NCBI GenBank assembly: GCA_007844125.1
Contig: CM017572.1
Coordinates: 32,549,764-32,613,763 of the forward strand
Reading direction: 5' to 3'
DNA: 64,000 nt
DNA from: Sinonovacula constricta
Taxonomy: Eukaryota > Mollusca > Bivalvia > Cardiida > Solecurtidae
Part shown: positions 6,001 to 18,130 of the stretch, one piece after another
Numbering within the stretch: the first letter of the stretch is position 1
How the letters are laid out: each line of letters starts with the position of its first letter
Program-made: the position numbers and the translations under genes
The notes under the pieces: model-generated
Told to the model about the DNA's origin: nothing
The model's database searches: none
The model's input: only the letters and a program-made list of their open reading frames with translations

Positions 6001-6250
6001 TAAACAAAGTTTATGAGAGGTATGTTGTCTTCATTATCACTTACAACACTATTCACACCATGTACCCCATCTCTTGCTACATCGTTTGTATCATTCACAC
6101 TCTTTTCCTCCTTTCCCTTCTCTTCTTCCTCTCACATATCAGCCTCTCCCTCTTCATCATAATTAGGTTCATAGTTAGCATCATTCCCCTCCTCCTCATA
6201 GCTCTGTTCCTTCTCTTCCAAATAAACAACAACCTCTTCCATCCGCCTAT
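6001..6250 (-). other. Acidic coding-like flank of the minisatellite (possible 3' end of a repeat-protein exon)
   Basis: On the minus strand the repeat frame that reads GEKGVDDK continues out of the minisatellite into unique sequence rich in Glu, Asp and Lys. It meets an in-frame TGA at 6132-6134, then runs about 42 more acidic codons to a TAA near 6001. The acidic composition carries across the TGA, which suggests former or present coding sequence. No family is recognised. A non-coding origin with chance openness is possible, because a 24-bp repeat stays in phase by itself. Confidence 0.35.
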
Positions 6251-9200
6251 CATCAACAACATTCCCGCTTATTATCATAACCCTTCTCCCCGATATCAGT
6301 AACACCCTTCTCCCCCTTATCATCAACACCCTTCTCCCCCTTATCATCAACACCCTCCTCCCCCTTATCATCAACAGCCTTCTCCCACTTATCATCAACA
6401 CCCTCCTCCCCCTTATCATCAACACCCTCCTCCCCCTTATCATCAACACCCTCCTCCCACTTATCACCAACAACATTCCCGTTTATCATCAATACACTTC
6501 TCCCCCTTATCATCAACAATCTTCTACCCCTTATCATCAACACCATCCTCCCCTTATCACAACAACCTTCCCGCTTATCATCAGCACACCTTCTCCCCCT
6601 TTTCATCACCAACCTTCCCGCCTATCATCAACAACATTCCCGCTTATTATCAAAACACTTCTCCTCGATATCATTAACACCCTTCTACCCCTTATCATCA
6701 ACACCCTTCTCCCACTTATCATCAACACCATCCTCCCCCTTATCATCAACACCATCCTCCCCTTATCACCAACAACCTTCCCGCTTATCATCAACATCCT
6801 TCTCCCCCATATCATCAACACCCTTCTCCCCTTATCATCAACACCCTTTTCCCCTTTATCATCGACACCCTTCCCGTTTATCATCAACACACTTCTCCCC
6901 CATATCATCAACACCCTTCTCCCACTTATCATCAACACCCTTCTTCCTCTTATCACCAACAACATTCCCGTTTATCATCAACACACTTCTCCCCTTATCA
7001 TCAACAACCTTCTCCCCCTTATCATCAACACCATCCTCCCCTTATCACGACAACCTTCCCGCTTATCAACAGCACCCTTCTCCCCCTTTTCATCAACAAC
7101 CTTCCCACGTATCATCAACAACATTCCCGCTTATTATCAAAACCCTTTTCCCCGATATCATTAACATCTTTCTCCCCCATATCATCAACACCCTTCTCCC
7201 CCTTATCATCAACACCATCCTTCCCCTTATCATCAACACCATCCTCCCCTTATCACCAACAACCTTCTCGCTTATCATCAACACCCTTCTCCCCCATATC
7301 ATCAACACCCTTCTCCCCCTTATCATCAACACCATCCTCCCCTTATCACCAACAACCTTCTCGCTTATCATCAACACCCTTCTCCCCCCTTATCATCAAC
7401 ACCCTTCTCCCCCTTATCATCAACACCCTTCTCCCCCTTATCATCAACACCATCCTCCCCCTTATCACCAACAATCTTCCCGCTTATCATCAACACCCTT
7501 CTCCCCCTTATCATCAACACCCTTCTCCCGCTGATCATCATTAACCTTCTCCCCCTTATCATCAACATCATCCTCCCCTTATCACGACAACCTTCCCGCT
7601 TATCATCAGCACCCTTCTCCCCGTTTTCATCAACAACTTTCCTGCTTATCATCAACAACATTCCCGCTTATTATCAAAAACCTTCTCCCAGATATCATCA
7701 ACACCCTTCTCCCCGATATCATCAACACCCTCCTCCCCCTTAGCATCAACACCCTTCTACCCCTTATCATCAACACCCTCCTCCCCTTATTATCAACAAC
7801 CTTCCCACTTATCATCCACACCCTTCTCCCCCATATCATCAACACATTCTCCCCCTTATCATCAACACCTTCTCCCCCTTATCATCAACACCCTTCTCCC
7901 CCCTTATCATCAACACCCTTCCCGTTTATCATCAACACACTTCTCCCCCCATATCATCAACACCCATCTCCCCCTTATCATCAACAACCTTCTCCCCCTT
8001 ATCATCAACACCATCCTCCCCCTTATCATCAACACCATCCTCCCCTTATCATCAACAACCTTCCCGCTTATCATTAACACCGTCCTCCCCCTTATCATCA
8101 ACACCATCCTCCCCTTATCATCAACAACCTTCCCGCTTATCATTAACACCCTTCTCCCCCATATCATCAACACCCTTCTCCCCATTATCATCAACACCCT
8201 TCACCCCTTATCATCAACACCCTTCGCGTTTATCATCAACACACTTCTCCCCCATAATATCAACACCCTTCTCCCCCTTATCATCAACACCCTCCTCCCC
8301 TTATCACCAACAACCTTCTCGCTTATCATCAACACCCTTCTCCCCCTTATCATCAACACCCTTCTCCCCCTTATCATCAACACCCTTCTCCCCCTTATCA
8401 TCAACACCATCCTCCCCCTTATCACCAACAACCTTCCCGCTTATCATCAACACCCTTCTCCACCTTATCACCAACAACCTTCCCGCTTATCATCAACACC
8501 CTTCTCCCCCTTATCATCAACACCCTTCTCCCCCTGATCATCATTAACCTTCTCCCCCTTATCATCAACACCATCCTCCCCTTATCACGACAACCTTCCC
8601 GCTTATCATCAGCACCCTTCTCCCCGTTTTCATCAACAACTTTCCCGCTTATCATCAACAACATTCCCGCTTATTATCAAAAACCTTCTCCCAGATATCA
8701 TCAACACCCTTCTCCCCGATATCATCAACACCCTCCTCCCCCTTAGCATCAACACCCTTCTACCCCTTATCATCAACACCCTCCTCCCCTTATTATCAAC
8801 AACCTTCCCACTTATCATCCACACCCTTCTCCCCCATATCATCAACACTTTCTCCCCCTTATCATCAACACCTTCTCCCCCTTATCATCAACACCCTTCT
8901 CCCCCTTATCATCAACACCCTTCCCGTTTATCATCAACACACTTCTCCCCCATATCATCAACACCCATCTCCCCCTTATCATCAACAACCTTCTCCCCCT
9001 TATCATCAACACCATCCTCCCCCTTATCATCAACACCATCCTCCCCTTATCATCAACAACCTTCCCGCTTATCATTAACACCCTTCTCCCCCATATCATC
9101 AACACCCTTCTCCCCATTATCATCAACACCCTTCACCCCTTATCATCAACACCCTTCGCGTTTATCATCAGCACACTTCTCCCCCATAATATCAACACCC

Positions 9201-11280
9201 TTCTCCCCCTTATCATCAACAACCTTCCCGCGTATCATCAACAACATTCCCGATTATTATCAAAACCCTTCTCCCCGATATCATTAACATCTTTCTCCCC
9301 CTTATCATCAACAGCCTTCTCCCCCTTATCATCAACACCATCCTCCCCCTTATCATCAACACTATCCTCCCCTTATCACCAACAACCTTCCCGCTTATCA
9401 TCAACACCCTTCTCCCCCTTATCATCAACACCATTTCCCCTTTATCATCAACACTATCCTCCCCTTATCACCAACAACCTTCCCCCATATCATCAACACC
9501 CTTCTCCCCCTTATCATCAACACCCTTCTCCCACTTATTATCAACACCCTTCTCCCCCTTATCATCAACACCATCCTCCCCCCTTATCACCAACAACCTT
9601 CCCCGCTTATCATCAACACTCTTCTCCCCTTTTCATCAACACCCTTCTCCCCCTGATCATCATTAACCTTCTCCCCCTTATCATCAACACCATCCTCCCC
9701 TTATCACGACAACCTTCCCGCTTATCATCAGCACCCTTCTCCCCCTTTTCATAAACAACCTTCCCGCTTATCATCAACAACATTCCCGCTTATTATCAAA
9801 ACCCCTCTCCCTTATATCATTCACACACTTCTCCCCGATATCATCAACACCCTCCTCCCCCTCATCATCAACACTCTTCTCCCCCTTATCATCAACACCC
9901 TCCTCCCCCTTATCATCAACACCCTCGTCCCACTTATCATCAACACCCTCCTCCAACTTATCATCGACACACTCTTCCCACTTATCATCAACACCCTTCT
10001 CCCCCTTATCATCAACACCCTCCTACCCCTTATCATCAACAGCCTTCTCCCACTTATAATCAACACCCTCCTCCCCCTTATCATCAACACCCTCCTCCCA
10101 CTTATCACCAACAACATTCCCGTTTATCATCAATACCCTTCTCCCCCTTATCATCAACAATCTTCTACCCCTTATCATCAACACCATCCTCCCCTTATCA
10201 CAACAACCTTCCCGCTTATCATCAGCACCCTTCTCCTCCTTTTCATCACCAACCTTCACGCCTATCATCAACCACATTCCCGCTTATTATCAAAACACTT
10301 CTCCCCGATATCATTAACACCCTTCTCCCCCTGATCATCAATACCCTTCTCCCACTTATCATCAACACCCTCCTCCCACTTATCATCAACACCCTCCTCC
10401 CACTTATCATCAACACCCTTCTCCCCCTTATCATCAACACCCTCCTCCCCCTTATCATCAACACCCTCCTCCCACTTATCATCAACACCCTCCTCCCACT
10501 TATCACCAACAACCTTCTTCCCCTTATCATCAACACCATCCTCCCTTATCACGACAACCTTCCCGCTTATCATCAGCACCCTTCTCCCCCTTTTCATCAA
10601 CAACCTTCCCGCTTATCATCAACAACATTCCCTCTTATTATCAAAACCCTTCTCCCCAATATCATTAACACCCTTCTGCCCGATATCATCAACACCCTCC
10701 TCCCCCTTATCATCAACACCCTTCTCCCCCTTATCATCAACACCCTCCTCCCGCTTATCATCAACACCCTCCTCCCACTTATCATCAACACCCTCCTCCC
10801 CCTTATCATCAACACCCTTCTCCACCTTATCATCAACACCCTCCTCCCACTTATCATCAACACCCTCCTCCTCCTTATCATCAACACCCTCCTCCCACTT
10901 ATCATCAACACCCTTCTCCCCCTTATCATCAACACCCTCCCCCCTTATCATCAACACCCTCCTCCCACTTATCATCAACACCCTCCTCCCACTTATCACC
11001 AACAACCTTCCCGCTTATCATCAACACCCTCCTCCCACTTATCATCAACACCCTTCTCCCCCTTATCATCAACACCCTTCCCCCTCTTATCATCAACACC
11101 CTTCTTCTGCTTATCATCAACACCCTTCTCCCCCTTATCATCAACACCCTTCTCCCCCTTATCATCAACACTCTTCTCCCCCTTATCATCAACACCCTCC
11201 TCCCACTTATCACCAACAACCTTCCCGCTTATCATCAACACCCTTCTCCCACTTATCACCAACAACCTTCCCCCTCTTAC
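6250..11280 (-). repeat. Large 24-bp minisatellite encoding GEKGVDDK-type octapeptide on the minus strand
   Basis: About 5 kb consists of roughly 200 variants of a 24-bp unit beginning TTATCATCAACA and ending CTTCTCCCCC. Because 24 bp is eight codons, frames stay open. The minus strand reads GEKGVDDK / GEEGVDDK in one frame and GRRVLMIS / GRRVLMIR in another. Units of 22, 23 or 25 bp break each frame every 60-130 codons. Variant units ending CCTTCCCGC or carrying TTATTATCAAAA recur at longer intervals and mark a higher-order structure; the segment near 7630-7845 is nearly repeated at 8633-8848. The unique flanks on both sides continue the GEKGVDDK register. Confidence 0.85.
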
Positions 11281-11360
11281 CATCAACACAATCCTTTCCC
11301 TTATCAACTTCAACTCCCTTCTCTTCCTCTATATCATCAAGAATATTATCAGCAATATTT
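11280..11360 (-). other. Coding-like upstream flank of the minisatellite
   Basis: Read on the minus strand, the unique sequence next to the array gives an acidic peptide (NIADNILDDIEEEKGVEVDK) in the same register as the VDDK repeat. An AG dinucleotide just upstream (minus strand ...GATGATAG) could be a splice acceptor. Together with the acidic segment at the other end, this suggests the array grew inside an exon. No homology is recognised and the frame is broken many times inside the array. Confidence 0.3.
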
Positions 11361-12684
<1,324 letters not shown>

Positions 12685-12945
12685 AGCTGTGACCAAAATT
12701 ACTTGGTCCAGACATTAGAAGGAAGTTGTTAACCGATCTGGATTAGTTATGTAATCTACATAGAACAAGGGCCATGCCTCCTGCCAGGTGATACTATTTA
12801 GTATTTAATATAATTGATTTCTCCAAACTAATATGTTAACATCTATATTACAGTTCTGTGTGCTTTATGTATGCATCTCATATTTGTAAAATTGCAACAA
12901 CAAAAATCAACATATGGTAAGTTGTCTATACCCCCAATAGTCATT

Positions 12946-12992
<47 letters not shown>
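12946..12992 (-). repeat. (GAT)n tail of a non-LTR retrotransposon
   Basis: About 15 ATC units on the plus strand, i.e. GAT/ATG units on the minus strand, lie exactly at the 3' end of the reverse-transcriptase-like sequence read on the minus strand at 12990-13491. Several non-LTR families end in simple-sequence tails rather than poly(A), so this is best read as the element's 3' tail. Confidence 0.65.
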
Positions 12993-13491
12993 GTTTAGAC
13001 TATCTAGGCCTTTTATTAATCCTTATCGAAGGGTGAGGCCTGGCTGTCCAGTCGAGAACGAAGTCTCCCTCTCCAACTACGGCGATCCAGTGGATTAGCG
13101 TCACCCATTCCTCTGGATGTACTTTCCCGTTTCACTAGGTCATCGCAAGTCAGTTAAGGTCTACCGAGGCCCGATGACAATCGACATTTTGAGTATGGAT
13201 CTTTGATATCCATCCTGCACTGTGTTCTGCATGGCCGAACCATCTCCACCTGCTCGTCTGGAGAATTTCAGAGATATCTTTGTTGTCTAGCTAAGAAAAA
13301 ATAGAGTCTATGGGTACATCGACTTCTGTTTGACAAGACAGATCCATCATATCATGGCTCTATCAATGCGTCGAAGCCTCTTAAGAGTAGCAGCTGTCAT
13401 TGTCATTGTTTCAGAGTCATACAGCAAAACAGGTCTGATGTAGCTTGTGTAGAGGCGACCTCTTGTTGTGATAGGCAGATGTTTGTTTGTT
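12993..13491 (-). pseudogene. C-terminal fragment of a non-LTR retrotransposon reverse transcriptase
   Basis: On the minus strand, starting at the Naiad junction, the translation shows the post-catalytic RT region of metazoan non-LTR elements: GRLYTSYIRPVLLYDSETM, then RLRRIDRAMI, then a stretch ending near a GRP...DD motif. It is interrupted by several stop codons and at least one frameshift. It is the downstream half of the ORF whose upstream half lies at 17685-18130; the two were separated by the Naiad insertion. The element ends in a (GAT)n tail. Known role: target-primed reverse transcription. This copy is dead. Confidence 0.7.
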
Positions 13492-13735
13492 AATAGGTAA
13501 ATAAGAAAAGGTCCCATCACAATTTTAACAGATATTTAAATTTTATCTACCTGCAGACCAAGGCAGACAAGGTAAATGTAAATGTGACAAAAAACACAGA
13601 GACGAGACATAACACACAAAAAGAAAAAACATCAGTTACCGCCTTGGAACGGTCAGTCTGCAAAATGGCGAACTGGGGTGCTTAAACCTGGTTTGTGGAG
13701 CGCTCCAACCTCGCACTTCCTGACGGTTTTTCTAT
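13492..13735 (-). repeat. Full-length terminal repeat (pseudo-LTR) of the Naiad, 3' side
   Basis: This ~245-bp sequence is closely similar to 89-336. Its outer 46 bp are repeated at 17639-17684 at the other end of the element (AATAGGTAAATAAGAAAAGG, then CC/TATCA, then ACAGATATTT). It contains the GGAGCGCTCC palindrome. Confidence 0.75.
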
Positions 13736-14236
13736 CAAACAAACAGTGTAAATAAAAGTATCCCGTCAAAGTGACACAACTAACAATAAGCACCTGCATC
13801 GGGAGTTAAAACAGATATAATGAACATATGTACAGTATTTACAGTAGATAAAAGCCTCGGCAACCAAAAAATTCCACATGAGAGAGTAGTTTAAAAATAA
13901 AATAAAGCAGTACAAGCGCTGATATATTATAAGAACCATATAACGACGTCATAAATGCCATGACGTCATATGCCAAAAGTGTCAAAAGTGAAATGTAAAC
14001 AATATGGAAGAAACAATAGAATTTTAGAAAATCAACAAAATAAAACGTAGTATTGTTTAGAGTTAATCGTTTAAAAAACATATTATAAACGCCGAGGATT
14101 TATCCGCAGTTGACATATTATATATGATAAAGATTAAAAAAAATCCCGATGTTATACCTACTGTGCAATCTCACGTAAAGGGTATGGAGACTGCTCAAGT
14201 TGTCCCACCTATATAGGGAACGACTGGAGAGATGAA

Positions 14237-14300
14237 GAGACAAGAAATCCAACAGTGACTGTCCAATTATGGCTTTAAGTCACTGTTTTCATATAGTCTC
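14237..14300 (-). promoter_or_regulatory. SECIS element (type II) in the 3' UTR of the Naiad
   Basis: On the minus strand this folds as a textbook eukaryotic SECIS. Helix I is GAGAC/GUCUC, followed by a short internal loop. The non-Watson-Crick quartet is UGAA opposite GGAU (U.U, G.A, A.G, A.G). Helix II is ten perfect base pairs, AACAGUGACU with AGUCACUGUU. One U then leads into the AA of the apical bulge, and a CCA/UGG mini-stem caps the hairpin, which is the type II form. The quartet-to-AA distance is 11 nt, within the usual 10-13. It begins about 26 nt after the TAA stop of the RT frame. SECIS elements recruit SBP2 and the Sec-tRNA elongation factor so that upstream UGA codons are read as selenocysteine. 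Confidence 0.85.
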
Positions 14301-14326
14301 AACGACCTGTCCGGTCATCGTGTAAT

Positions 14327-16130
14327 TTAAAAGCAATGCAAGTTCTTGACTGTAAAAGGGTCAATTGCAAGCAATGCAGTACATCGAAGTATTCCCGGGT
14401 TGAAACCGTCTGCAATACATTTTCTGATAAGTTTTGTAAAGTGGTCAGAAAAGTTATTGAGACCCTTGATCTTCTTTAACTTGTATAAAACATTTCCATA
14501 AAATGCAGGATGGCTTATGCCTTTCTGCATAAGTGTTTTTATACTGCTATTATACTTAGAAGCAATAAAATCATTGCGGTGAAAGAATTTTGAAAACGCC
14601 TTTCTTAATCTATGAAAACGAAAGCCTTGCTGTAACAGTTTAGAAGAAATAAACAGGTTTCTAGCATTGAAATCTTCTACTTTAGTACAAACTCGTGCAA
14701 ACCTTGTAAGTTGTGGTATGTAAATACCATAGGGGGTAGCACGAGGTGAATCACCATCATGGTATGGATAATTCACAATACTAAAGTTGAAATCATCTCT
14801 CTTGTCATAGATTTTAGTAGAGACGTTTTCATTGGAAATATTGATCTCAATGTCTAGAAATGCTGCATTTAAATGTCAGTTATTTGCTTTATTAAGGGTA
14901 AGTTCTGGAGGGTAAATCAGATGGATCATTTGAGAAAAGAAAGGATTATCTATAGTTAGAATATCGTCAAGATAGCGTGACGTTAAATTGAAAGCCTCTA
15001 TAATGTGGCTTTGGTTTGAAGGGGATAAAGTTAACATGAAATCACGTTCAAAGCAGTATAAAAACAAATCTGCAATTAATGGTGCACAGTTGGTTCCCAT
15101 AGGGATACCAATTACTTGTCTAAATAAAGTGTCACCGCATTTTATGTAAATATTGTCTAATAGAAAACGTAAAGCTTCACAAACATCCGTGCAAGTCCAC
15201 ATAGTAAACTTTTCTAAGAATGTGTTGGTAAAAAAAGCATTACTTTCATGACATGCAATATATAGACGTTGCTCTCGAGCAAATGTTTTCTCAATAAGAG
15301 CAATCAATTTGGTCTTAATTAAATCATGAGGTAAAGAAGTGTACAGCGTAGAGAAATCGTAAGTATTAACTGCAGAGCAATGGAAGTTTAAAGTACGAAA
15401 CTTGTCTAAGTCTTCTGAAGAATTTTTAATAGACCAAAAAATGTTAATTCCTGAATTTTCATACACTTTTTCACAATATTTAACAACGTGATTGCGAACG
15501 GCTGTAAGGCAAGACGTAAGTAGTTTAGATATGTGAGTGGTGGTGCTAGAGCTGGCATTAGCTATGAATCGTGACTTGTATGGTGTTTTGTGAAGCTTAG
15601 GAATCCAGTACAAGGAAGGAAGTTTTTCTTGCTTTGTTTCTATTTTGATATTGAAATTATGCAATATCTGTTTATGTTTGTCAATGACTGTCTGAAAGTC
15701 AAGGTTGGTGCAAGAGTAAGAACTGGTGGTGGATAACTCAGCACTCAGTATATTTTTGTAATAAAGTCGTCAGACAAAAATTATGTTGTTTGAAGCTTTG
15801 TCTGCAGGTACAAGTACAAATTTATCGTGAATATTCTGAAAGGACTGTTTTAGATGTTTTAAGTGATAAAAAGGTTTCTTAGGTATACTAGAAGGATGGG
15901 AGCGGTAGAATTTAACGCGATTTTTTATTATCTTAAAAATGGCTTTCTATCAAGTATTAAGTGCTACTGTATCCGTGTTTTCTCTCTTACACCAGCGATC
16001 GGCAAACAGATTAATTGCATCAGAAATTTCTTTGCAACAAAGGTCAAAATCTATGTCATCTGGCAGGCGATATTTCGGGCCCTTAAAGAGTAATTTTCTC
16101 AATTTGTAGTCATCGATGATGTTTAAAAAT
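14327..16130 (-). pseudogene. Naiad reverse transcriptase domain with in-frame TGA codons
   Basis: One minus-strand frame stays open from about 16130 to a TAA at 14327-14329 except for TGA at 15950, TAG at 15947, TGA at 15770 and TGA at 14876. Visible RT motifs, in order: PADKASNNIIFV just before the 15770 TGA; LPSLYWIPKLHKTPYKSRFI; motif A around YDFSTLYTSLPH; motif B GIPMGTNCAPLIADLF; and motif C RYLDDIL with the catalytic Asp pair. A C-terminal thumb-like region follows to the TAA. The 15770 TGA follows FV and precedes RLYYK, where related RTs commonly have Cys. The 14876 TGA lies in the LNKANN segment before AAFLDIEI. The TAG marks this copy as damaged. The enzyme would copy element RNA at the target. 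Confidence 0.8.
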
Positions 16131-16690
16131 CCCAGTAATGATATGGCCAGAAGGTAAATAACAGAAAGGTGAAGTGGAACAGTTACAAGAATCTTGAGAA
16201 GGGTCATTTAGGTTAAGGTCTGCTACTGTTTGGTTGTAATTAAAAATAAGACCTCTAATGGGTTTTTTGTACTTATAACAAATCATTGGGTTTTCTTTGT
16301 TTTCGAAGTAACACGGGATTTTATTGATGATATTTTTGTCCCGAAAGATACTAGGTAAGTCGATAAAATCAATCCCTTTATTAATGTATTTGATTTTCAT
16401 GAAATGTCGTTTATGTTGAGACTGTTTATCTATATGAGGTCTTAAAGCATGGGTAGTATACTTTTGAATGATGGAAGCCACCTCATATAAAGGATGAGTA
16501 CGTAAATATATTTTATCTGCCTCATTGTCCAAAATAACTAGTGATTTCAAGGGTAGATTGGTAACTGTACAAAGTAAGGCGTGAATACCAGATCGAATAT
16601 AAAGTGTGTTCAGATCTTGAATAGAAACTGTTTTCCTAAATCTGCGCTTAAGATTATGATTTTTTTCTAATTCCATGAGACCGTCGTTTG
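16110..16690 (-). pseudogene. Naiad linker region with CxC motif, between endonuclease and RT
   Basis: This part reads in another minus frame than the flanking domains, so a frameshift lies near 16690 and another near 16125. It contains SCNCSTSPFC followed by LPSGHIITG, the CxC-type linker expected between the N-terminal endonuclease and the RT in Naiad elements. The RT frame then picks up at LNIIDDYKLRKLLFKGPKY. The junction residues match well across both frames, which supports simple indel damage rather than separate genes. Confidence 0.7.
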
Positions 16691-17478
16691 CGCTTGCGTA
16701 AAGATAGAATACTAAAGATGTCAATGTTCGAATTTTTAGAAATATTGCCCGCCTGATAAATATTGTCATTAAGACCGAGTGGAAATGGAGTCTGAAGTTT
16801 TTTAATCCAATCAAGTTCGGCACTGTTTCTGGCCTGTAATTTAAATCCTTTAGAAACATCGTCATCGAAAACAATTTTTTGCAAAGGTTGTATGTTCACA
16901 TATTTTAAAGAATGTCCTGTAGTTAGAAAATGATTATAAAGGTAGTTCTTAAAACGACGAGCGTTACGGATTTTATATGAATGTCCTCGAAATCTTATTT
17001 TAAGCGCCCGCCCCGTTTGTCCAACGTACTGCAGTTTACAGTTAGGATGGTTTCATGTTATAACATAAATTATGTTGTTACTTTGTCAATCAACATCACA
17101 AGGTAAGGAAATGTTAAATGTACGGCCATTTACAGTAGACTTGACAGTGGAGTTACAGTTAAGGAATCTACATGTACTACATCTTGTATAATTACACTTG
17201 TAGATATTAAAGTACACATTATGTCCACTTTGCATTTGTGCGGGGGAATTCTTTACATTACTACTAGGAACGTTACGTAAAATACACGACTGCCGAAGAA
17301 ATAAATTACTCGAATTGGAAATATAAACCCGGGAAGACGGGTGTAATTTTATTGGTGAAATATTGACAGTGACTCTTCTAGAAAATATATCATCAGAACC
17401 ATGAGCCAAATGCACAGTAGACACATTATGCAATTTTAAGGGAGAAATATTTATGTTTGGTTTTAGTAGTCTGTTCAT
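16654..17478 (-). pseudogene. Naiad N-terminal region and GIY-YIG endonuclease with two in-frame TGA codons
   Basis: Starting from the Met at 17478, the frame shows an internal duplication (INISPLKLH and VNISPIKLH), then a Cys-rich stretch (KCNYTRCSTCRFLNC), then the endonuclease: NIIYVIT, QYVGQTGRALKIRFRGH, NHFLTTGHS and AELDWIKKLQTPFPLGLND. These are the two tyrosine motifs, the conserved Arg, the His and the Glu/Trp segment of Penelope-type GIY-YIG nucleases. TGA codons at 17086-17088 and 17053-17055 lie 11 codons apart. The second directly follows YVIT, where Penelope-type endonucleases have a zinc-binding Cys. No other stop interrupts the frame down to the frameshift near 16690. The domain nicks target DNA for integration. 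Confidence 0.8.
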
Positions 17479-17638
17479 GGTTGTTTTATTTCAAGTAAAA
17501 TAAACCTAAGTCCAAGGTATGTCAAAAGAAAATATACGTAACAATCCTGATAGGATGATAGGATGACAACATAGATCACATGCACGGGGAGATTTTTTAC
17601 GACCGCCACACTGCACAAGCAACACTGTTGTGATTATG

Positions 17639-17684
17639 AATAGGTAAATAAGAAAAGGTCCTATCAAAATGTTCACAGATATTT
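17639..17684 (-). repeat. 46-bp partial terminal repeat, 5' side of the Naiad
   Basis: This matches the outer 46 bp of 13492-13735 in the same orientation with a few mismatches. Host non-LTR sequence resumes immediately at TGAAGCAGCTCTCTGAAC, so it marks the right boundary of the insertion. Confidence 0.75.
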
Positions 17685-18130
17685 GAAGCAGCTCTCTGAA
17701 CTTTTTCCGTGCTGACTTGCATCTTGTTGTTACAACGAGCTCACATCCACCTCCAGATGACAACATATCATGAAGGTAGCAGAAGTCTGTTACTACTTCA
17801 AGCTTTTCCTCACCGACTGTAACCTCTGGTAGTGGCCTACCATCAATGGTACGAGCAAGTCCATTACAGCGAGGGCACTTGTAGTTAAGAACAAGCTTGA
17901 GGGGTCTTTTACTTCCACTACACTTCTTATGTACCCAACCAGAGCAATTTGAGCCGATAATGGAGTTTCTGCCTGTACCATTGAAACAGACACCACATGG
18001 ATACTTTCTAGATCTTCTTAGGGTATCCTGATTTGGACTGGAGATCGTTACCTTTGTCTTATTCATGCTGACTCTGAGCTCTTTCTCCTCCATACTCATC
18101 TTCTATGTGGCAACTCTTTCCAGCAACGAT
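17685..18130 (-). pseudogene. Middle fragment of the same non-LTR retrotransposon ORF, with a PHD-like zinc cluster
   Basis: On the minus strand this reads MEEKELRVSMNKTK, then a PHD-finger-like cluster (CGVCFN...C..WVHKKCSG...YKCPRC), then PEVTVGEEKLEVVTDFCYL and KKFRELLQ up to the Naiad border. This order is familiar from invertebrate non-LTR RT ORFs. A TAG replaces an expected Trp just upstream of the first Met, and similarity fades at about 18130, so the element is 5'-truncated. Translation resumes across the Naiad at 13491 (ITTRGRLYTSYIRP). Confidence 0.7.

What the first reader, a model, noticed from the sequence alone, without database searches (positions are those of the whole stretch)
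14327..17478. Retroelement ORF whose in-frame stops are almost all TGA, several at expected Cys positions
After allowing for two frameshifts, the Naiad frame is interrupted six times: TGA at 17086, 17053, 15950, 15770 and 14876, and TAG only at 15947. Random decay should give a mix of TAA, TAG and TGA. The TGA at 17053 follows YVIT, where Penelope-type GIY-YIG domains carry a zinc-ligand Cys. The 15770 TGA sits in FV-x-RLYYK, where related RTs commonly have Cys. The 17086 and 14876 codons fit less certainly, and the 15950 TGA sits beside the TAG and may be decay. Established: Naiad Penelope-like elements in clams have been reported to encode multiple selenocysteines. The assignment of this copy is my inference.
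Basis: partly seen in the sequence, partly recalled or inferred. Interest (0 to 1): 0.9.

Follow-up and report, generated by a model that had tools for sequence, protein, structure and literature searches.

The report
Jumping gene that probably uses selenocysteine
This is a damaged copy of a young, abundant animal jumping gene whose protein is interrupted by four fixed UGA codons and whose RNA carries the hairpin that tells cells to read UGA as the rare amino acid selenocysteine; it is a clear case of a kind of element already reported, not a new kind.

Summary
The window holds a minus-strand Penelope-like element of Naiad layout with two frameshifts, five in-frame TGA and one TAG. Sibling copies in the same 1.22-Gb genome separate signal from decay. 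TGA at 17088, 17055, 15772 and 14878 is fixed (23/23, 23/23, 38/39, 39/39 readable copies); the TGA at 15952 is TGG and the TAG a Lys codon in 39/39, so those two stops and the frameshifts are decay. Eight fetched copies have an open frame (1049 codons in seven) broken only by the same four TGAs. Three TGAs fall on Cys columns of relatives, the fourth on a Ser column. Of 120 listed relatives, 63 end exactly at the third TGA column and 42 at the Cys of a CxC motif; Cys and stop interchange there at least 11 times on a tree. Best explanation: UGA is decoded as selenocysteine. Sec-coding clam Naiads are, as I recall, published (Craig et al. 2021), so this is a new member of a known kind. Translation was not shown.

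The parts
13480..17687 (-). Approximate extent of the element unit, with 57-nt direct repeats at its ends (13484-13540 and 17631-17687, 86% alike, spacing 4147)
   Evidence: homology to sibling copies reaches these ends; neighbouring head-to-tail copies elsewhere lie about 4145 apart (C5:64572049 and 64576194; C10:43909118 and 43913262).
14327..17478 (-). Coding region of the element protein (1049 codons in seven open sibling copies); in the window broken by two frameshifts and two private stops
17086..17088 (-). TGA, protein position 131, Cys column just before the GIY-YIG motif
   Evidence: TGA in 23 of 23 readable copies; Cys in the one relative that covers it, P0123
17053..17055 (-). TGA, protein position 142, Cys column before YVGQT; possibly a zinc ligand of the endonuclease (recalled, not tested)
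   Evidence: TGA in 23 of 23 readable copies; Cys in 3 of 3 relatives; 28 of 120 relatives begin at residue 149, just after it
15950..15952 (-). TGA private to the window copy: decayed Trp codon
   Evidence: TGG in 39 of 39 readable copies; Trp in 15 of 18 relatives that cover it
15947..15949 (-). TAG private to the window copy: decayed Lys codon
   Evidence: AAG in 38 and AAA in 1 of 39 readable copies
15770..15772 (-). TGA, protein position 569, conserved Cys column in the N-terminal part of the RT region
   Evidence: TGA in 38 of 39 readable copies, AGA in 1; relatives: 19 Cys, 11 Trp, 63 end exactly here
14876..14878 (-). TGA, protein position 867; Ser column in relatives, so a lineage-specific site
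   Evidence: TGA in 39 of 39 readable young copies; 7 TGA and 1 CGA in 8 readable older copies; relatives 99 Ser, 9 Thr, 2 Cys of 122
14237..14300 (-). [quoted passage not shown]
   Evidence: Rfam RF00031, 45.7 bits, E 3e-7, whole model matched; its stretch folds at -25.8 kcal/mol, z -3.4
16780..17086 (-). N-terminal GIY-YIG endonuclease region (IIYVIT...YVGQTG), approximate ends
   Evidence: Aligned to P0123, whose residues 109-200 match Pfam GIY-YIG at E 0.0012, 19.5 bits (below the 22.6 cut-off)
14330..16120 (-). Reverse transcriptase region (GIPMGTNCAP, SRYLDDI)
   Evidence: 1624 homologues, 120 listed; the predicted fold of the whole protein matches telomerase RT best

Best explanation
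The window holds one decayed copy of a young, high-copy Naiad-type Penelope-like retrotransposon that encodes a selenoprotein. In open copies a single mRNA would be translated into a 1049-residue endonuclease-RT protein. Four UGA codons (positions 131, 142, 569, 867) are read as selenocysteine because the 3' UTR carries a SECIS hairpin that recruits the host's SECIS-binding protein, eEFSec and Sec-tRNA (the pathway is established knowledge). Shown here: the four fixed UGAs in an otherwise open frame, the SECIS, Cys or chain end at three of the columns in relatives, and signs of selection across the frame. Inferred: that Sec is actually inserted, and that the host supplies the machinery. The window copy itself is broken (two frameshifts, two private stops).
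For: Fixed TGA at four columns in 123 of 124 codons against 22 scattered private stops; eight open copies with only those four TGAs. SECIS over the gathering score right after the ORF in the window and in 4 of 5 sampled young copies (L012, L024, L044, L050; L031 did not pass). Of 13 SECIS matches in the genome search (8 over the cut-off), 11 have this RT upstream and the other two (L055, L062) align to its 3' UTR at 73-81%. SECIS diverges less than the neighbouring 3' UTR in young copies (1.8% against 4.2% and 2.9%). Three TGA columns are Cys columns. In relatives, chains end at Cys columns 431 (42) and 569 (63) and only once at the other 32 Cys or Sec columns of the query (three more end at 429). 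Trp stands at column 431 or 569 or both in 15 proteins whose unaligned tails are Trp-rich (32 of 875, against 11 of 1066 in the Cys569 set and 10 of 2457 in the rest), as if TGA had been read as Trp by a gene caller. pN/pS 0.42 over young copies and 0.24 for changes shared by three or more.
Against: No peptide, ribosome footprint or reporter was seen. Host Sec machinery was not tested (the tRNA-Sec search did not complete). UGA 867 lies on a Ser column. After UGA 867 the pN/pS of distinct changes is 0.94 and of singletons 1.18, so selection there is weakly shown (4 against 3 shared changes). Within this genome the fixed TGAs could be inherited from one recent founder; no second Naiad family with its own sites was found there. 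In the metagenome relatives the stop was inferred from protein ends, not read in DNA. The genome search for SECIS scored only 150 of 29838 candidates and did not list the window's own. One of 5 young copies (L031) and two further copies (L066, L067, 3' part different) gave no SECIS match.
Confidence: 0.93

Rival explanations
1. All stops are ordinary decay of a dead element; the excess of TGA is chance or a mutational bias.
For: The window copy is decayed: two frameshifts, a TGA where siblings have TGG and a TAG where siblings have a Lys codon.
Against: Four TGAs are fixed in siblings while private stops are mostly TAA (14 of 22) and never recur; eight copies have no other stop; a SECIS lies downstream.
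Confidence: 0.02
2. UGA readthrough without selenium: near-cognate tRNA (Trp, Arg or Cys) at leaky UGA codons, or a host that reads UGA as Trp.
For: Three of the four codons are UGA-C, a context I recall as leaky; some relatives carry Trp at the same columns.
Against: Apart from Trp, Cys is the only residue at column 569 (19 of 19) and nearly the only one at 431 (68 of 71), and the Trp proteins look like table-4 gene calls; a full SECIS would be unexplained.
Confidence: 0.03
3. The UGAs divide the element into separate ORFs that are started again on their own, so that endonuclease and RT are separate proteins.
For: Many database relatives begin just after 142 or 569, but these are gene-caller starts.
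Against: Relatives with Cys run through as one chain (P0123, 988 aa; P0122, 859 aa); UGA 131 and 142 lie 11 codons apart; starts after the stops are scattered, whereas ends are exact.
Confidence: 0.02

Closest known systems
Sec-encoding Naiad Penelope-like elements of clams and spiders (Craig et al. 2021, Mol Biol Evol 38:5005; content recalled, paper not held; its reference seen in PMC11167929)
   Same: N-terminal GIY-YIG endonuclease followed by RT in one long ORF, telomerase-like RT, tandem copies, high copy number, several in-frame UGAs (recalled features, compared).
   Different: I could not compare sequences or UGA positions with the published clam families, so this may be one of them. 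A UGA at a Ser column and repeated Cys/stop interchange at the CxC Cys are features I do not recall from that paper.
Selenoprotein P of bivalves (46 Sec in oysters, 132 in one bivalve species; passages of PMC8230778)
   Same: One mRNA with several UGA-Sec codons, in molluscs.
   Different: A host gene, not a mobile element; the passages seen say the vertebrate mRNA has two SECIS elements, while one was found here.
Cys-containing relatives P0123 and P0122
   Same: Endonuclease-RT order (P0123 whole; P0122 begins inside the endonuclease) and 29-31% identity over most of the chain.
   Different: Cys instead of UGA where covered (131, 142, 569 in P0123; 142, 569 in P0122); no Cys at 867.

Membership tests
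Naiad (Penelope-like element with N-terminal endonuclease) | GIY-YIG endonuclease lies N-terminal to the RT | tested here: met
   residues about 137-230 align to the N-terminal GIY-YIG region of P0123 (Pfam E 0.0012, below the cut-off); RT follows. Pfam found no domain in this protein itself.
Naiad (Penelope-like element with N-terminal endonuclease) | RT related to telomerase RT | tested here: met
   Foldseek against PDB: ranks 1-15 are telomerase structures, best E 3.6e-11; model pLDDT 80.2, pTM 0.63. Sequence search of PDB: no match.
Naiad (Penelope-like element with N-terminal endonuclease) | Linker domain with a CxC motif (recalled) | tested here: met
   C431-N-C433; Cys at 433 in 82 of 82 relatives that cover it. 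That this is the named CxC motif is my inference.
Naiad (Penelope-like element with N-terminal endonuclease) | Tandem arrangement with pseudo-LTRs | tested here: met
   Neighbouring copies about 4145 apart; 57-nt terminal repeats in the window
Naiad (Penelope-like element with N-terminal endonuclease) | No hammerhead ribozyme (recalled) | tested here: met
   No hammerhead among the 7 Rfam matches up to E 10 in 12800-18000
Naiad (Penelope-like element with N-terminal endonuclease) | Insertion bias for microsatellites (recalled) | tested here: inconclusive
   (TCA)n at 12932-13001 and (TA)n at 12527-12616 lie about 0.5-1 kb from the 3' end; not counted over copies
Naiad (Penelope-like element with N-terminal endonuclease) | Insertion-in-fingers domain in the RT (recalled) and place inside the Naiad clade of a PLE tree | not tested
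   No named Naiad reference sequences were at hand
Eukaryotic selenoprotein | In-frame UGA at Cys columns of relatives | tested here: met
   Positions 131, 142 and 569; not met for position 867 (Ser)
Eukaryotic selenoprotein | SECIS in the 3' UTR | tested here: met
Eukaryotic selenoprotein | Host Sec machinery (tRNA-Sec) | not tested
   The search was sent nine times and never answered (last try)
Eukaryotic selenoprotein | Sec present in the protein | not testable with these tools
   Needs mass spectrometry or a reporter assay

The most novel reading that the evidence does not exclude
Sec coding is not a rare invention of clams and spiders but is widespread in this branch of Naiads. One UGA site (column 569) is held by many of the sampled lineages, while the first Cys of the CxC motif (column 431) has switched between Cys and UGA at least 11 times. 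Once a retroelement carries a SECIS, UGA becomes a tolerated codon, so sites can toggle between Cys and Sec and new UGAs can settle even on non-Cys columns such as 867. A mobile element would then carry selenium dependence between genomes.
Probability: 0.55. Interest if true: 0.72.

Novelty: new member of a known kind. Interest (0 to 1): 0.6.

Why it matters
Retroelements with several selenocysteines would tie transposition to the host's selenium status, and repeat annotation that counts UGA as decay would discard live elements. If Cys and Sec toggle repeatedly at the same sites, these elements are a natural replicate experiment on why a Cys becomes Sec, an open question in selenoprotein evolution. 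For this window, the practical lesson is that stops in repeats can be sorted into recoded and decayed by comparing sibling copies and looking for a SECIS.

Tried and rejected
Rejected: that 15952 is a Sec codon (TGG in 39 of 39 readable siblings; Trp in 15 of 18 relatives). Rejected: that the TAG belongs to the element (Lys codon in 39 of 39). Rejected: that L065-L067 are separate families (they are further copies of the same one; L065 has a SECIS, L066 and L067 showed none in the fetched stretch).

Led nowhere: viral-contig scans (no relative; two pattern matches, L068 and L069, not read further). The genome-contig scan gave three fragments, only one covering a site (L002, TGT at column 569) and none with a SECIS. 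PDB sequence search of A2: 0 matches. Papers: one search found none with all three terms; the listed parts (20 of 635; 15 of 27; 20 of 83; 6 of 6) show none on Sec-coding Penelope-like elements by title and abstract start; the 2021 paper is not held. The search with P0123 for other Naiad families in the genome did not complete.

A limit of the comparison: the 13 SECIS loci were picked by SECIS score, so their lower SECIS divergence (8.9% against 18.7% and 19.4%) is biased and is not used; only the young copies are. Relatives were tallied from the listed rows alone (120 of 1624, 2 of 2, 120 of 216).

Full report
What is there. On the minus strand, 17478 to 14327, the window carries a Penelope-like retroelement protein in three frames with five TGA, one TAG and a TAA end. 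No second copy was found in the window. The genome (G000, 1.22 Gb, 177 contigs; window at C18:32549764-32613763) returned 44 DNA matches, 96-100% identical (40 of 4484 candidates scored), and two protein searches had 7646 and 7066 first-look candidates. The unit spans about 13480-17687, has 57-nt terminal direct repeats and occurs head to tail elsewhere at about 4145.

Which stops are real. I fetched 40 stretches with further copies (L012-L051) and read the codon at each position. TGA is present at 17088 in 23 of 23 readable copies, at 17055 in 23 of 23, at 15772 in 38 of 39 (one AGA) and at 14878 in 39 of 39. The codon at 15952 is TGG in 39 of 39, and the one at 15949 is AAG in 38 and AAA in 1. 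The window's frameshift near 16660 is absent from 28 of 29 copies that cover the place fully, the one near 16125 from 39 of 39. Walking back from the TAA, eight copies (L012-L018, L021) have only these four TGAs in frame, with 1049 codons in seven and four more in L021. In 40 young copies, other in-frame stops were 22 at 22 sites (14 TAA, 5 TGA, 3 TAG). In 11 older copies (83-93% identical), TGA is kept at 569 in 2 of 2 readable and at 867 in 7 of 8 (one CGA).

The SECIS. Rfam's SECIS_1 model matches 14300-14237 over its whole length at 45.7 bits (gathering 35), 26 nt after the stop codon; the stretch folds at -25.8 kcal/mol, z -3.4. A genome search with this model (150 of 29838 candidates scored, so a lower bound; the window's own was not among those listed) returned 13 matches, 8 over the cut-off. 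Eleven have this RT upstream and the other two, L055 and L062, align to the element's 3' UTR. Of five young copies tested, four passed the cut-off (L012, L024, L044, L050) and L031 did not; L065 passed, L066 and L067 gave no match. Young copies differ less in the SECIS (44 of 2432 positions) than in the next 200 nt (308 of 7419) or the following stretch (324 of 11315).

Relatives. The RT search gave 1624 proteins, of which 120 were listed. The search with residues 80-300 gave 2. The search with the stretch between UGA 142 and UGA 569 gave 216, 120 listed. Of those 120, 63 end exactly at residue 568 (one, P0124, 97% identical; the other 62 are 43-62%) and 42 at residue 430 (46-65%), and 28 begin at 149. 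The choice of query stretch favours proteins of that length, so these shares are not frequencies in nature; the exactness of the ends is the point. Over the 242 listed relatives, column 569 shows 19 Cys, 11 Trp and 63 ends; column 431 shows 68 Cys, 11 Trp, 3 others and 42 ends; the other 32 Cys or Sec columns of the query together show one end, and three more chains end at 429. Column 867 is Ser in 99 of 122; proteins ending there would mostly have been too short for the search, so the lack of ends at 867 says nothing. P0123, an unbroken 988-residue relative, has Cys at 131, 142 and 569. A fragment from a mussel-symbiont assembly (L002) has TGT at 569.

Toggling. On a tree of 109 rows over residues 150-428, Cys431 against stop431 needs 19 changes, at least 11 forced by well-supported branches; 52 rows combine Cys431 with an end at 569. 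Two of the four Trp rows sit inside a clade of stop rows, and the 15 Trp proteins have Trp-rich unaligned tails (32 of 875 residues, against 11 of 1066 in the Cys569 set and 10 of 2457 in the rest; P0171 is in two sets), which fits TGA read as Trp by a gene caller. That the stops are TGA in these relatives is therefore inferred, not read.

Selection. Over 40 young copies pN/pS is 0.42 (451 nonsynonymous, 344 synonymous; transition weight 2), and 0.42, 0.37, 0.50 and 0.44 for residues 2-130, 143-568, 570-866 and 868-1049. Counting each distinct change once gives 0.64 overall and 0.94 for the last segment (singletons 0.74 and 1.18); changes shared by three or more copies give 0.24 overall (17 against 23) and 0.42 in the last segment (4 against 3). 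So the frame was under constraint in the source lineage; for the part after the last UGA the evidence from copies alone is weak, but that part is also conserved against distant relatives.

Fold. The model of the open sibling's protein (60-row alignment, Cys in place of Sec) has mean pLDDT 80.2 and pTM 0.63. Its best PDB matches are telomerase reverse transcriptases. TM-scores are low (0.2-0.3 by query), so this supports the RT class, not details. The GIY-YIG assignment rests on P0123 (Pfam E 0.0012, below the cut-off).

Mechanism and standing. The simplest account is a selenoprotein retroelement: UGA 131, 142 and 569 stand at cysteine columns and UGA 867 at a serine column, all decoded through one SECIS. 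Craig et al. 2021, as I recall its abstract, reports that Naiads in spiders and clams independently evolved to encode selenoproteins with multiple selenocysteines. I saw only its reference. The finding is therefore a well-supported new member, possibly even a described family, and the less expected part is how often the stop/Cys exchange occurs in relatives.

Noticed in passing
18328-40443: A tandem array with a period of about 8.8 kb (97-99% alike) with a YqaJ/PHD protein on + and DDE_Tnp_4 transposase ORFs on -, apparently a transposon carrying a YqaJ nuclease.
   Followed up: partly
6227-11340: A long tandem array whose copies are about 82-86% alike; one frame (10619-11005) reads as a repeat rich in GVDDK.
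   Followed up: no
17506-18099: A 197-aa minus-strand ORF with a weak PHD-finger match (below the cut-off) that overlaps the 5' end of the element; may be part of another retroelement.
   Followed up: no
L066, L067: Copies of the same element whose 3' part differs and in which no SECIS was found in the fetched stretch; L067 keeps all four TGAs, so such copies might not be decodable on their own.
   Followed up: partly
P0005, P0006, P0007, P0085 and others: Database proteins with Trp at columns 431 and 569 and Trp-rich tails look like eukaryotic Sec genes called with TGA as Trp.
   Followed up: partly
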